This document shows, piece after piece, positions 2,845 through 45,547 of a stretch of 64,000 nucleotides of DNA (within the stretch, counting starts at the first letter, position 1; each line of letters begins with the position of its first letter). The notes beneath the pieces were generated by a model. That model was not told where the DNA came from. It did no database searches and was given only the letters and a program-made list of their open reading frames with translations. The DNA comes from an uncultured Paracoccaceae bacterium (GTDB lineage: Bacteria > Pseudomonadota > Alphaproteobacteria > Rhodobacterales > Rhodobacteraceae), in the NCBI GenBank assembly GCA_947495795.1, contig CANMAI010000005.1:62001-126000 (forward strand), in the 5' to 3' direction. The position numbers were made by a program, and so were the translations under genes.

Positions 2845-3292
2845 AACTGAAGGCGAGGCGCATGTGGTTGTGAGGCGGCGGTTTGCTGCACCACCTGAAG
2901 CTGTGTTTCGGGCGCATACCGAGCCTGACTTGCTGCGACAATGGATGCTGGGACCGGAAGGATGGAACATGACCGAGTGCATCTCTGACGCGCGGCCGGG
3001 TGGACGAATGGCCTTTGGCTGGGAAGATGGCGCCGGTTCAAGTTTTCGTTTGACAGGGGAATATGAGATTGTCGAGCTGGGGCGGAGGATTGTGCATGTG
3101 GAGCGGATGCATATGCCGGACCCGACACCGGACAACCATATAGAGACGTTGTTCGAGCGCGATGGATCCGGAACCCTGATGACGCTGCGGATGACCTTGC
3201 CGGATGCGGCTACGCGGGCCGCGATGCTGGAGAGCGGGATGGCCGACGGGATGGAAGCGAGTTATGCGCGGCTTGACGGGCTGAGCGTGTAG
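2825..3292 (+). CDS. SRPBCC (AHSA1/START-like) domain protein
   Basis: 155 residues forming one SRPBCC helix-grip domain: the start VVVRRRFAAPPEAVFRAHTE, the tryptophan motif LLRQWMLGPEGW, central strands (GEYEIVELGRRIVHVERM), and a C-terminal helix (MADGMEASYARLDGL). Such proteins bind hydrophobic small molecules in a deep cavity; the ligand is unknown. Its ATG at 2825 lies inside the end of the ArsR gene. It is likely expressed under that regulator, perhaps acting on the same ligand. Confidence 0.85.
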   Translation: MTRMTLETEGEAHVVVRRRFAAPPEAVFRAHTEPDLLRQWMLGPEGWNMTECISDARPGGRMAFGWEDGAGSSFRLTGEYEIVELGRRIVHVERMHMPDPTPDNHIETLFERDGSGTLMTLRMTLPDAATRAAMLESGMADGMEASYARLDGLSV

Positions 3293-3300
3293 CCCACCGC

Positions 3301-3361
3301 CGCGCAACGCTCCGCCGGCGGTTCCCGCCCACCCACCCCACCGCCGACCAAGCGTTGCGCG
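3301..3361. repeat. Hairpin repeat with G-quadruplex loop, copy 1
   Basis: Outer arms CGCGCAACGCT (3301-3311) and AGCGTTGCGCG (3351-3361) are perfect 11-bp complements. Inner arms CGGCGGT (3316-3322) and ACCGCCG (3340-3346) are perfect 7-bp complements. The 17-base loop TCCCGCCCACCCACCCC reads on the minus strand as GGGGTGGGTGGGCGGG, four G-runs with single-base linkers. It lies between the SRPBCC and SDR genes. Copies 2 and 3 are at 5371 and 45465. Confidence 0.85.
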
Positions 3362-3442
3362 ACGGAGGGGTGGATGAAGGGTTGCATGTTTCCCGGAATG
3401 GGAGAGAGTGTGCCTATCTGCCCTGAGCCGAGAGGTGCGCGT

Positions 3443-4186
3443 GTGTCTGACCCATCTAAGACGAGAACGCTTTTGCTGACAGGGGCGAGCCGCGGGATTG
3501 GGCATGCGACTGTGCGGAAGTTTGCCGCCGAGGGGTGGCGTGTGATCAGCTGCTCTCGACAGGCCTTTTCAGATGAGTGCCCCTGGCCGGGAGGGGAGCG
3601 GAACCACATTCAGGTGGATCTCGGCGATCCGAACCAGACGATGGGGGCGATTGACGAGATCAAGGCCCGGCTGGACGGTGGGCGGCTGGATGCTCTGGTG
3701 AACAATGCAGGTATTTCGCCGAAAGGCGATGGTGGGGCGCGGCTCTCCACCCTCGATACGGATTTGCGTGTATGGGGGCAGGTATTCCATGTGAACTTCT
3801 TTGCCTCTGTCGTGTTGGCACGGGGGCTGCGGCGGGAGCTTTCCGCGGCAAAGGGCGCCGTGGTGAACGTAACGTCGATTGCGGGTTCGCGCGTGCATCC
3901 CTTTGCGGGTGCTGCCTATGCGACATCGAAGGCGGCACTGGCCGCTTTGACCCGGGAAATGGCCCATGATTTCGGGCCTTTGGGCGTGCGCGTGAATGCG
4001 ATAGCGCCGGGCGAAGTGGAGACGAGTATTCTGAGCGAAGGGACGGACAAGATCGTGGCGGGGCTGCCGATGCGCAGGCTGGGGCAGCCGGAAGAGGTGG
4101 CGAGCGCGATCTACTTCCTCTGTTCGGATCAGAGTTCCTACGTGTCCGGGACGGAGATCGAGGTGAACGGAGCACAGCACGTTTGA
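3443..4186 (+). CDS. Short-chain dehydrogenase/reductase (SDR, FabG-like)
   Basis: 247 residues from the GTG at 3443, which has GAGAGG upstream; the longer open frame would read through the hairpin tail. Classical SDR motifs are all present: TGASRGIG for the cofactor, NNAG, the catalytic serine in NVTSIAGS, and the YATSK tyrosine/lysine pair. The end SSYVSGTEIEVNGAQHV is typical of FabG-like NAD(P)-dependent oxidoreductases. The substrate is unknown. It follows the ArsR-SRPBCC pair across a G4 hairpin, the same order as at 44523-46250. Confidence 0.88.
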   Translation: MSDPSKTRTLLLTGASRGIGHATVRKFAAEGWRVISCSRQAFSDECPWPGGERNHIQVDLGDPNQTMGAIDEIKARLDGGRLDALVNNAGISPKGDGGARLSTLDTDLRVWGQVFHVNFFASVVLARGLRRELSAAKGAVVNVTSIAGSRVHPFAGAAYATSKAALAALTREMAHDFGPLGVRVNAIAPGEVETSILSEGTDKIVAGLPMRRLGQPEEVASAIYFLCSDQSSYVSGTEIEVNGAQHV

Positions 4187-42071: not shown

Positions 42072-43613
42072 TTAGGAGGTCATCGCTGCGGGCGCTGACT
42101 TTTCGCGCCGGACGATGAGCTTGTTGAGTGCGTTGACATAGGCTTTTGCGGAGGCGACCACGGTATCGGTCTCCGATGCCTGACCGGTGACGATCTTGCC
42201 GCCTTCTTCCATCCGCACGGTTACGGTGGCCTGGGCATCAGTGCCTTCTGTGACGGCATGGACCTGATAGAGCGCCAGTTCCGCCTCATGCGGGAAGAGG
42301 CGGGTGATGGCGTTGAAGGTTGCATCGACCGGGCCATCGCCCTGTGCCGTCACCTGATGATCCTGTCCGTCGATGGTGAGCGTGAGATCCGCGCTTTGCG
42401 GGGCTTCGGTGCCGCAGATCACCCGCAGGAATTTCACCTTGATCGTATCGTGCCCGGCGCTGGTGGTGCTGTCGGCCATCATCGCAAGAAGGTCGTCATC
42501 GTAGATTTCCTTCTTGCGATCTGCCAGAGCCTTGAATCGGACGAAGACATCGTTGAGCTGATTGTCGCCAAGCTGGAAGCCGAGCGCTTCGAGTTTGGAG
42601 CGGAGGGCGGCGCGGCCGGAATGCTTGCCCATGACGAGATTGCTTTCGGTAAGGCCGACATCTTCGGGCGCCATGATCTCGAATGTGCCCGCGTGTTTCA
42701 GCATGCCGTCCTGATGGATGCCGCTTTCGTGTGCGAAGGCGTTCTTGCCGACGATGGCCTTGTTGTACTGAACGGCGAAGCCCGAGACATGCGCGACGCG
42801 GCGGGAGATCTGCATGATCTTGGTGGTGTCGATGCCGGTATCAAAGGGCATGATATCGTGGCGGACTTTCATGGCCATCACGACCTCTTCGAGCGCGGTG
42901 TTGCCCGCCCGTTCGCCGAGGCCGTTGATGGTGCATTCGATCTGGCGGGCACCTGCCTCTACGGCGGCAAGGCTGTTGGCCGTCGCCATTCCAAGATCGT
43001 TGTGGCAATGCGTGGCGATTGTGATTTCGTCCATGCCCGGCACGCGTTCGAGCAGCATCCGGATGATGTCCGCGCTTTCGCGGGGGGCGGTGTAGCCGAC
43101 GGTATCGGGGATGTTGATTGTGGTGGCACCTGCCTTGATCGCAATCTCGCAGACGCGGGCGAGGTAATCATCCTCGGTGCGGGTTGCGTCCATCGGGCTC
43201 CATTGCACGTTGTCGCAGAGGTTGCGGGCGTGGGTGACAGTGGCGTGGATCTTATCGGCCATCGCTTCCTTATCGAGCTTTACCTGAAACTCGCGGTGAA
43301 GCGGTGAGGTGCCGATGAAGGTGTGGATGCGGGGGCGCTTGGCGTGTTTGACTGCCTCCCAGCAGCGGTCAATATCGCCGAAGCTGGCACGGGAGAGGCC
43401 GCAGATGACGGCGTTTTGGGTTTGGGCAGCGATCTTGCTGACGGCCTCGAAATCGCCGTCGGAGGCGATCGGGAAGCCCGCTTCTATGATATCGACGCCC
43501 ATCTCATCGAGGAGCTGGGCGATTTCCAGCTTTTCGGTGAGGGTCATCGTGGCGCCGGGGCTTTGCTCTCCGTCGCGCAAGGTGGTGTCGAATATCTGCA
43601 CTCTGTTGGTCAT
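42072..43613 (-). CDS. leuA: 2-isopropylmalate synthase
   Basis: 513 residues, the usual LeuA length. First committed step of leucine synthesis: acetyl-CoA plus 2-oxoisovalerate. The HMGL-type barrel has DTTLRDGEQSPGATM (metal aspartate), TINIPDTVGYTAPRE, and the HxH metal pair in IATHCHNDLGMATAN. The C-terminal LeuA regulatory dimerisation domain (about 390-510) includes ALYQVHAVTEGTDAQATV and gives leucine feedback. It lies 34 bp downstream of an RNA-ligase-like gene on the same strand. Confidence 0.96.
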   Translation of the reverse strand: MTNRVQIFDTTLRDGEQSPGATMTLTEKLEIAQLLDEMGVDIIEAGFPIASDGDFEAVSKIAAQTQNAVICGLSRASFGDIDRCWEAVKHAKRPRIHTFIGTSPLHREFQVKLDKEAMADKIHATVTHARNLCDNVQWSPMDATRTEDDYLARVCEIAIKAGATTINIPDTVGYTAPRESADIIRMLLERVPGMDEITIATHCHNDLGMATANSLAAVEAGARQIECTINGLGERAGNTALEEVVMAMKVRHDIMPFDTGIDTTKIMQISRRVAHVSGFAVQYNKAIVGKNAFAHESGIHQDGMLKHAGTFEIMAPEDVGLTESNLVMGKHSGRAALRSKLEALGFQLGDNQLNDVFVRFKALADRKKEIYDDDLLAMMADSTTSAGHDTIKVKFLRVICGTEAPQSADLTLTIDGQDHQVTAQGDGPVDATFNAITRLFPHEAELALYQVHAVTEGTDAQATVTVRMEEGGKIVTGQASETDTVVASAKAYVNALNKLIVRREKSAPAAMTS

Positions 43614-43647
43614 TGTCTTGTCCTCTGAATGTCTTTGGGAGGGAGGC

Positions 43648-44187
43648 CTATTTGAAGCCGAAATCCCGCCGTTTGATTTTTGCCATGCGCCCGTCTGGGT
43701 GATGGAAGACGATCCCTTCGCCGACCAGGCTTTCCAGAAAATCCCGCAGCCCTTCGAAATCGCGGGGACAATCCTCGAACTGCTCCGCTTTTGCGTGAGC
43801 CACCATGGTGTGGGCTTCGGCTTTTTCCGGATTTCCCTGAACCTTTGGGCCGATCAGCTCATAAGTGCCGGGCTTTGGATCGGTTACGCTGGCGATCCCT
43901 TCGAGATGCCATTTATCCGTGGGCTCGACCGGCATCCAGCCGACCGACTTCCCCGTAACAGGATCCTCCGCTGCGAGGGTGAAGCCGGGCGGAAGGGCAG
44001 CACCGGGCTTGATCTCGCGCCGTTTCCACCAGGTTATGCCGTCGAACATTGTGCAGGTGCCGTCATATTTGCGGGTCGCGGTGCCTTCGCTCGCGAGTAC
44101 CCAGAGACAATCGGGGTGCGGAGTGTTGAGAACACGGGAAGGATTACCTTCAAAATCGCGGTTGAAGACTGTGGGTGTCTTTCTCAT
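43648..44187 (-). CDS. RNA-ligase-family protein (DUF5565/HsRnl C12orf29-like)
   Basis: 179 residues. The nucleotidyltransferase motifs are in order: motif I TRKYDGTCTMF with lysine 40 as the expected AMP acceptor, then WWKRREIKPGAALPPGF, motif III GTYELIGPKVQGNPE, motif IV GEGIVFHHPDGR, and motif V MAKIKRRDFGF. This set matches the small 5'-3' RNA ligases related to human C12orf29. It probably adenylylates itself with ATP and joins RNA ends; the biological substrate is unknown. ATG 44187 is 34 bp upstream of leuA. Confidence 0.8.
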   Translation of the reverse strand: MRKTPTVFNRDFEGNPSRVLNTPHPDCLWVLASEGTATRKYDGTCTMFDGITWWKRREIKPGAALPPGFTLAAEDPVTGKSVGWMPVEPTDKWHLEGIASVTDPKPGTYELIGPKVQGNPEKAEAHTMVAHAKAEQFEDCPRDFEGLRDFLESLVGEGIVFHHPDGRMAKIKRRDFGFK

Positions 44188-44263
44188 CTCATCGCTCCCG
44201 CCGCTTCTGATGTGCGCGGCGCGATGATTGATACCGTTTAAGAAGTGTCATGGAGTTGTGCCT

Positions 44264-44389
44264 TGTTCAGCATTTCAGATTATCCGTTGGGCTTTTCGGT
44301 GCGGCGCGTTTCCCCTGAGCGGGCGCACCGGAACCGGCACGCTCAGGGGCGTGTAAGGAGGAGGCCGGAAAGGAGATCTGTGCTGAACA
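44264..44389. other. Structured intergenic element, possible regulatory RNA
   Basis: TGTTCAGCA (44264-44272) pairs with TGCTGAACA (44381-44389), bracketing the element. Inside, CCCCTGAGCG (44312-44321) pairs with CGCTCAGGGG (44340-44349), and CGGTGCG (44297-44303) pairs with CGCACCG (44324-44330) located in that loop. The interleaved order allows a pseudoknot or two alternative folds. It lies 77 bp upstream of the RNA-ligase gene (minus) and 130 bp upstream of an ArsR gene (plus). It does not match a riboswitch known to me. Confidence 0.4.
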
Positions 44390-44475
44390 TAGCGCTTTAT
44401 ATACCGGGGGGTTGTGGGGGTGGCCAAGAGAAAAGCGCTGTTTTGGGTGAAAAAAGCTTGATATGAAACTATAAG

Positions 44476-44494
44476 GTTTCTATTTAATAGAAAC
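44476..44494. promoter_or_regulatory. Perfect palindrome upstream of second ArsR gene (likely operator)
   Basis: GTTTCTATT and AATAGAAAC are perfect 9-bp arms with a single-base spacer, 28 bp before the ArsR start. An outer ATATGA/TCATAT pair (44461-44466, 44504-44509) adds symmetry. This is a likely autoregulatory site for the adjacent regulator. Confidence 0.6.
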
Positions 44495-44522
44495 TAAATG
44501 GTATCATATGGAGGTAGATACG

Positions 44523-44849
44523 ATGATGAACGCTGGCGAGGGTGCATTTCGCGCTCTGGCAGATCCGACGCGGCGGGCGATTCTCTCGCTTCTGGCGGAG
44601 GAGGACATGACGATTGGGCGGGTTGCGGAGAATTTCGCGATGACGCGCCCGGCGATCAAGAAGCATCTGGGCATTCTGGAGGAGGGCCAGTTGATCCGCG
44701 TGGAAGCGCGGGGGCGGGAGCGGGTGAACCGCTTCAATCCCGAAGGGCTGCGCGCAGTGACGGGATGGTTGGGAGAGCTGGACCGGTTCTGGAACCTGCG
44801 GCTGGACCGCCTGAAAGCAGAAATTGAAAGGGATATGAAAGATGAGTGA
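44523..44849 (+). CDS. ArsR-family regulator, second SRPBCC-associated copy
   Basis: 108 residues from ATG 44523, which has GGAGGT seven bases upstream; ATG 44508 overlaps that site and is unlikely. GAFRALADPTRRAILSLLAE, MTIGRVAENFAMTRPAIKKH and the wing LIRVEARGRERVNRFNPEG are characteristic. No metal-binding cysteines. The SRPBCC gene overlaps by 8 bp. Same layout as the pair at 2491-3292. Confidence 0.88.
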   Translation: MMNAGEGAFRALADPTRRAILSLLAEEDMTIGRVAENFAMTRPAIKKHLGILEEGQLIRVEARGRERVNRFNPEGLRAVTGWLGELDRFWNLRLDRLKAEIERDMKDE

Positions 44850-45464: not shown

Positions 45465-45547
45465 CCGTCCAGCCCGGCGCATCCTTTTCGCGGCAGCGCC
45501 CACCCGCCCGCCCCGCTGCCGCGAAAAGGATGCGCCGGGCTGGACGG
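45465..45547. repeat. Hairpin repeat with G-quadruplex loop, copy 3 (34-bp perfect stem)
   Basis: Arms at 45465-45498 and 45514-45547 are perfectly complementary over 34 bp (outer ends CCGTCCAGCCCGGC and GCCGGGCTGGACGG). The 15-base loop CCCACCCGCCCGCCC gives GGGCGGGCGGGTGGG on the minus strand, again four G-runs with single-base linkers. The stem sequence differs from copies 1 and 2, while the loop design is shared. It lies between SRPBCC and SDR genes, as copy 1 does. Confidence 0.9.

What the first reader, a model, noticed from the sequence alone, without database searches (positions are those of the whole stretch)
43648..44187. Small C12orf29-like RNA ligase in a bacterium, directly upstream of leuA
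All nucleotidyltransferase motifs are in order in only 179 residues (KYDG, ELIGPKVQG, EGIVFHH, KIKRRDF). The closest relative I recognise is human HsRnl, an RNA ligase linked to oxidative-stress survival. It shares a 34-bp junction with leuA and has no tRNA-repair partner (RtcB, polynucleotide kinase) nearby. An RNA-repair role in this lineage appears undescribed.
Basis: partly seen in the sequence, partly recalled or inferred. Interest (0 to 1): 0.62.

Follow-up and report, generated by a model that had tools for sequence, protein, structure and literature searches.

The report
Phage-type RNA ligase behind leucine attenuator
A small RNA-repair enzyme of an already described family, common in phages, has been inserted between the leucine-sensing control region and the leucine-synthesis gene leuA of one bacterium, so it is probably made when leucyl-tRNA runs short.

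Summary
The ORF is real: 179 aa, minus strand, 34 bp before leuA. It belongs to the RLIG1/C12orf29 family (Pfam RLIG1 just above cut-off; phrog_14301 'RNA ligase' E 2e-50). AlphaFold2 gives pLDDT 96; the top PDB match is Yasminevirus RLIG1 (E 4e-13). All seven catalytic residues mapped from that structure are present. 'Undescribed in bacteria' is overstated: bacterial and phage homologues have been assayed or surveyed (PMC11494293, PMC10364804), and the closest relatives found are phage and bacterial proteins of similar size (up to 60% identical), not the human enzyme. The Rhodobacteraceae leu attenuator (Leu-rich leader peptide MFSTDLLSGLLLTRP plus two competing hairpins) lies just upstream of the ligase. 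A covariance model built without the window finds it at E 1e-17, and finds exactly one copy in 192 of 199 family genomes. In 149 genomes inspected leuA follows it, usually about 67 nt after the hairpin; a congener has the empty site. The ligase is thus a lineage-specific insertion into the leuA transcription unit, predicted to be co-expressed with leuA and induced by low leucyl-tRNA. Function beyond RNA ligation is inferred.

The parts
43648..44187 (-). RLIG1-family (PF17720, phrog_14301) 5'-3' RNA ligase gene, 179 aa; K40, D42, R56, E110, H131, E157, K170 correspond to Yasminevirus RLIG1 K73, D75, R89, E174, H195, E240, K253
   Evidence: residue roles from PMC11494293
44195..44199 (-). Shine-Dalgarno-like GGGAG of the ligase, 7 nt before its ATG
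   Evidence: sequence
44343..44390 (-). leu leader peptide ORF MFSTDLLSGLLLTRP (5 Leu of 15 codons), UGA stop inside the first hairpin arm
   Evidence: aligned leader in congener G001 is MFSASTLRLTGLLTRP
44287..44378 (-). Rhodobacteraceae leu attenuator, match to covariance model R1 (72.7 bits, E 1e-17)
44312..44349 (-). hairpin A, CCCCTGAGCG...CGCTCAGGGG, 10 bp
44297..44330 (-). alternative hairpin B, CGGTGCG...CGCACCG, which crosses hairpin A and competes with its inner stem
   Evidence: U-A instead of the common C-G pair, shared with congener G001
44398..44427 (-). probable leu promoter, TTGGCC - 18 nt - TATATA, 7 nt before the leader ATG
   Evidence: sequence; TTGGCC and TATAA are kept in congener G001; not found by the consensus scan
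43640..44285 (-). inserted segment of about 646 bp relative to congener G001, mostly ligase ORF; ends approximate
   Evidence: ends set by hand: CCCAAC / CCAAAG kept in G001
42072..43613 (-). leuA (2-isopropylmalate synthase), gene after the ligase in the unit; own SD AGAGGA at 43621-43626

Best explanation
A phage-type RLIG1-family ATP-dependent RNA ligase gene was acquired horizontally and landed between the leu attenuator and leuA. Shown by sequence: family, predicted fold, active site, and the intact leader peptide plus attenuator upstream with leuA downstream on the same strand. Inferred: the enzyme adenylates K40, passes AMP to a 5'-phosphate RNA end and seals it to a 3'-OH end, most likely broken tRNA anticodon loops. 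Inferred: it is transcribed from the leu promoter together with leuA and is raised when leucyl-tRNA is scarce, because ribosomes stall on the leader Leu codons and shift the A/B hairpin choice. The leucine control most likely reflects capture of a host promoter rather than a dedicated design. Cleaned ends (5'-P, 3'-OH) would have to come from other enzymes, since no full Pnkp was found.
For: Family: PF17720 26.1 bits against cut-off 25; phrog_14301 E 2e-50; profile against PDB 9c6l E 5e-24. Fold: pLDDT 96.4, best 12 PDB hits are all Yasminevirus RLIG1 chains, E 4e-13 at best. Active-site residues invariant or nearly so in 25 homologues. Insertion: congener G001 has attenuator then leuA directly, with the same divergent ArsR (80%) and AHSA1 (50%) genes. 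Attenuator: R1, built from 17 relatives without the window, hits upstream of the ligase and nowhere else in the genome; 192 of 199 family genomes carry one copy and leuA follows it in all 141 fetched. Horizontal origin: 2 of 397 family genomes, 1 of 385 class genomes; in the tree it sits with 30 viral and 4 bacterial rows (97/87); GC3 0.66 against 0.78 for leuA.
Against: No expression or activity data. Hairpin B is not followed by a U-run, so the terminator is not a canonical intrinsic one and the step that is regulated (transcription, Rho, or translation) is unknown. If control normally acts on the leuA translation start, the ligase rather than leuA is now the near target. A private promoter for the ligase cannot be excluded (one weak sigma-70-like match at 44224-44251, about the chance level). 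The Pfam match covers only residues 107-178.
Confidence: 0.78

Rival explanations
1. Dedicated RNA-damage circuit: the leader peptide acts as a sensor of intact, charged tRNA-Leu; when a nuclease (phage, toxin or the cell's own) cuts tRNA-Leu, ribosomes stall, attenuation is relieved and the ligase is made to repair the tRNA.
For: Position right after the leu attenuator; RLIG1 proteins seal tRNA anticodon loops in vitro (PMC11494293); the genome also encodes a PrrC-like AAA_13 protein, a candidate anticodon nuclease.
Against: One genome only; none of the 30 ligase-homologue loci searched has this attenuator; the same slot holds an unrelated cupin gene in 9 other genomes, so it accepts genes without an RNA link; no nuclease specific for tRNA-Leu was found here.
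Confidence: 0.1
2. Neutral phage-derived passenger: an active or decaying phage ligase kept only because it does not harm leuA expression, with no role in the host.
For: Tree position among phage genes, near absence in relatives, long end branch 0.87, no partner genes nearby.
Against: Full-length ORF with every catalytic residue intact and a good Shine-Dalgarno; a dead passenger should lose motifs. Selection cannot be measured from one sequence.
Confidence: 0.3
3. Phage-defence counterplay: a prophage-style anti-restriction ligase that repairs tRNAs cut by anticodon nucleases, as proposed for viral RLIG1 and known for T4 Rnl1.
For: 277 related stretches in viral contigs; identifiable neighbours in viral contigs are largely replication and recombination genes; proposal in PMC11494293.
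Against: No phage genes next to this copy; it now answers to a host biosynthetic promoter; no kinase/phosphatase partner.
Confidence: 0.2
4. A nucleotidyltransferase of this fold that modifies protein or another acceptor and is not an RNA ligase.
For: Only self-adenylylation chemistry is fixed by the motifs; no RNA-binding domain is present in this 179-aa protein.
Against: RLIG1 homologues without the extra RNA-binding domain of T4 Rnl1 ligate RNA (PMC11494293); the fold search returns only RNA ligases above noise.
Confidence: 0.05

Closest known systems
RLIG1 / C12orf29 (human; Yasminevirus PDB 9c6l, 9c6m)
   Same: Same fold (Foldseek E 4e-13), same seven catalytic residues, same order of motifs I-V
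   Different: 179 aa against a 277-aa chain (Yasminevirus) and about 325 aa (human, from memory); about 22% identity in the fold alignment; lacks the insertions; bacterial genomic setting
Phage and bacterial DUF5565/phrog_14301 RNA ligases (e.g. Mycobacterium phage Gengar gp78, Cellulophaga phage phi10:1, Streptomyces plasmids, Microvirga)
   Same: Same length class, end-to-end match, up to 60% identity, same conserved EGxVFHHPDGRM block
   Different: Those found lie among phage genes, on plasmids or in unrelated loci; none of the 30 genome loci searched is behind this leu attenuator
leuA leader-peptide attenuators of proteobacteria
   Same: Leu-rich leader ORF, competing hairpins, upstream of leuA
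   Different: Not matched by any Rfam family in the window; no U-run after hairpin B; here a foreign gene sits between attenuator and leuA
T4 Rnl1 / Rnl2 (PF09414, PF09511) with Pnk
   Same: Same three-step lysyl-AMP chemistry expected
   Different: No PF09414 hit in the genome, weak fold match only (E 0.1 to T4 Rnl1), no Pnk partner

Membership tests
RLIG1/C12orf29 RNA ligase | Match to the curated family model (PF17720) | tested here: met
   26.1 bits against cut-off 25, residues 107-178; phrog_14301 E 2e-50 over the whole protein
RLIG1/C12orf29 RNA ligase | Catalytic residues of motifs I, Ia, III, IIIa, IV, V | tested here: met
   K40/D42, R56, E110, H131, E157, K170 align with Ysp K73/D75, R89, E174, H195, E240, K253 (roles)
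RLIG1/C12orf29 RNA ligase | RLIG1 fold | tested here: met
   AlphaFold2 pLDDT 96.4, pTM 0.85; top 12 PDB matches are 9c6l/9c6m
RLIG1/C12orf29 RNA ligase | Auto-adenylation and sealing of 5'-P to 3'-OH RNA | not testable with these tools
   needs purified protein
T4 Rnl1/Rnl2-type RNA ligase | Match to PF09414 / close fold | tested here: not met
   no PF09414 match in the genome; T4 Rnl1 fold E 0.1
Pnkp/Hen1 or RtcB repair operon | Repair partner beside the gene | tested here: not met
   neighbours are leuA, ArsR, AHSA1, SDR, DPRP; RtcB-RtcR lies on contig C4; no full Pnkp
leu ribosome-mediated attenuator | Leu-rich leader ORF upstream of a leu biosynthetic gene, conserved in relatives | tested here: met
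   (leaders in most family genomes examined)
leu ribosome-mediated attenuator | Two alternative hairpins kept by compensatory change | tested here: met
   94.8% of cells paired, 4 pairs with changes on both sides, slid controls 31-55% paired; only 17 sequences and many invariant pairs, so moderate strength
leu ribosome-mediated attenuator | Intrinsic terminator with U-run | tested here: not met
   hairpin B is followed by AAAAGCCC; no minus-strand terminator found
leu ribosome-mediated attenuator | Response to leucine or leucyl-tRNA | not testable with these tools
   needs RNA measurements

The most novel reading that the evidence does not exclude
The ligase is under a tRNA-Leu charging sensor that doubles as a tRNA-damage sensor: loss of intact leucyl-tRNA lifts attenuation and directly induces the enzyme that can reseal the tRNA.
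Probability: 0.08. Interest if true: 0.75.

Novelty: new member of a known kind. Interest (0 to 1): 0.38.

Why it matters
The enzyme itself adds one more bacterial member to a described RNA-ligase family. The location makes its regulation predictable: the ligase should rise with leucine or leucyl-tRNA shortage. It gives a simple way to test whether a phage-type tRNA ligase has been domesticated by a host, and it shows that the slot behind the Rhodobacteraceae leu attenuator occasionally takes up other genes.

Tried and rejected
Human enzyme as closest relative: rejected, phage and bacterial homologues are far closer. Rfam search of the window and of 43500-44600: nothing credible. tRNA genes near homologues, reported as enriched in PMC10364804: few seen here, 4 of 30 genome loci and 8 of 60 viral loci, three of the latter with undefined anticodon; no control was run, so this neither confirms nor refutes that report. 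Neighbour-family tallies for genome and viral loci: no recurring repair partner; a mix of replication and recombination genes in phage-like loci. Same attenuator at other ligase loci: none. A second Rhodobacteraceae copy (L002/L033) is a contig-edge fragment near a queE-like gene, not leuA. A regular-expression test for a conserved -10 box upstream of leaders was badly designed (both strands counted) and is not used.

Full report
OBSERVATION. The reported ORF is real, on the minus strand, 43648-44187, 179 aa, ATG start with a GGGAG Shine-Dalgarno, and leuA starts 34 bp after its stop. The motifs quoted are all present.

WHAT THE PROTEIN IS. It matches PF17720 RLIG1 just above its curated cut-off (26.1 against 25 bits, residues 107-178) and phrog_14301 'RNA ligase' over its whole length (E 2e-50). 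Its closest solved structures are 9c6l and 9c6m, Yasminevirus RLIG1, by sequence (E 2e-15; profile E 5e-24) and by fold (AlphaFold2 pLDDT 96.4; Foldseek E 4e-13, all top 12 hits; then Naegleria ligase at E 6e-3 and T4 Rnl1 at E 0.1). Residues shown in PMC11494293 to matter in Yasminevirus RLIG1 (K73, D75, R89, E174, H195, E240, K253) align with K40, D42, R56, E110, H131, E157, K170 here; E110, E157 and K170 are invariant and the rest nearly invariant in 25 homologues.

RELATIVES. Homologues of the same small size occur sporadically: 31 loci in GTDB genomes from many phyla, two labelled Thermoplasmata and one DPANN archaeon, 20 phage records, 13 plasmid records and 277 stretches in viral contigs. 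A tree of 111 rows puts the window protein in a set of 35 rows, 30 viral and 4 bacterial besides itself (97/87), on a long end branch; viral and bacterial labels are interleaved, with at least 12 changes forced by supported branches. In its own lineage the gene is nearly absent: 2 of 397 family genomes, the other a contig-edge fragment beside other genes, neither of the two congeners, and 1 of 385 class genomes. GC3 is 0.66 against 0.78 for leuA. Horizontal gain, probably from a phage-type source, is the simplest reading; the donor is not identified.

THE ADDRESS. Upstream of the ligase on the same strand lies a 15-codon ORF, 44390-44343, MFSTDLLSGLLLTRP, whose stop codon falls in the first arm of a strong hairpin. 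Leu-rich leader ORFs are found upstream of leuA in most of the relatives examined, usually 120-230 nt before it; in the window the leader is 777 nt before leuA. In the congener G001 the leader (MFSASTLRLTGLLTRP), hairpins and leuA follow one another directly, and ArsR and AHSA1 homologues lie divergently upstream as in the window, so the site is syntenic and empty. The insertion is about 646 bp (43640-44285, ends set by hand) and is mostly the ligase ORF.

TESTS OF THE ATTENUATOR. From 17 relatives, without the window, I aligned the leader region. Two helices are kept: A (10 bp, 100% paired) and B (7 bp, 87% paired), which cross and compete; 4 pairs change on both sides, and slid controls pair in only 31-55% of cells. 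The evidence is moderate because many pairs never vary. A covariance model of the leader region with hairpin A hits the window at 44287-44378 minus with 72.7 bits, E 1e-17; it is the only hit in the genome. It hits once in each of 192 of 199 family genomes. I inspected 141 of these (30 loci returned, 111 fetched) and leuA follows in every one, median 67 nt after hairpin A; eight more were seen among the loci. Nine of these 149 have a 117-118 aa cupin gene (Cupin_2) in the gap; none but the window has the ligase. So the slot is usually empty, takes a cupin in about 6% of genomes, and takes the ligase once.

MECHANISM. Shown: the order promoter-like TTGGCC-18-TATATA, leader, A/B hairpins, ligase, leuA, all on one strand with short gaps and no minus-strand terminator found between. 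Inferred from established knowledge of leader-peptide attenuation (general principle in the abstract of PMC1183508): stalling at Leu codons under low leucyl-tRNA changes the hairpin choice and raises downstream expression. Not resolved: hairpin B lacks a U-run, so the regulated step may be Rho-dependent or translational. With the ligase inserted, translational control would fall on the ligase rather than on leuA. The enzyme is inferred to use the three-step ligase reaction on 5'-P/3'-OH RNA; tRNA halves are the substrate best supported by work on homologues (PMC11494293).

PARTNERS. None beside it. The genome has RtcB beside RtcR on contig C4, no full Pnkp, no PF09414 ligase, and a 774-aa AAA_13 protein on C21 that matches PADLOC PDC-S06 strongly and PrrC weakly over its C-terminal part. 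The last is a candidate anticodon nuclease and a lead only.

NOVELTY. The protein is a new member of a known kind; bacterial and phage members were assayed in PMC11494293 and surveyed in PMC10364804. I found no paper on a Rhodobacteraceae leu attenuator in the held library, and no Rfam family matches, but subscription journals are not held, and comparative work on proteobacterial attenuators from the early 2000s is known to me only from memory. The placement of an RNA ligase under a leucyl-tRNA sensor is, as far as I could search, undescribed. It may be chance: one genome, and a slot that also takes a cupin.

Noticed in passing
44287-44378 (-) and 192 of 199 family genomes: A conserved Rhodobacteraceae leu attenuator (leader peptide plus competing hairpins A and B), one copy per genome, for which no Rfam 15 family scored in the window.
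   Followed up: yes
L056, L099, L117, L123, L127, L130, L132, L182, L204: A 117-118 aa cupin gene sits between the leu attenuator and leuA in 9 of 149 genomes; its function and the reason for the link to leuA are unknown.
   Followed up: partly
45465-45547: Perfect 34-nt inverted repeat with a 15-nt loop (CCGTCCAGCCCGGCGCATCCTTTTCGCGGCAGCG) just before the SDR gene; single such element in the genome apart from one 3-mismatch half site.
   Followed up: partly
L300:1414-3738 (G000:C21): 774-aa AAA_13 protein with a CPFC zinc-hook-like motif; strong PADLOC PDC-S06 hit, weak PrrC hit in the C-terminal part; possible RloC/PrrC-like anticodon nuclease in the same genome.
   Followed up: partly
L070:1444-2928 and 3119-3754 (G000:C4): RtcB-like protein divergent from RtcR, so the host has a separate RNA-repair locus.
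   Followed up: partly
44189-44251 (-): 20-codon ORF MTLLKRYQSSRRAHQKRRER whose stop lies one base before the ligase ATG; could couple translation or be chance.
   Followed up: no
L010:8438-12782: In an Atribacteria MAG the ligase is in a tight overlapping cluster with a RecA-like protein, a phage endonuclease I-like protein, a PD-(D/E)XK nuclease and an AAA ATPase, i.e. a phage-like segment.
   Followed up: no
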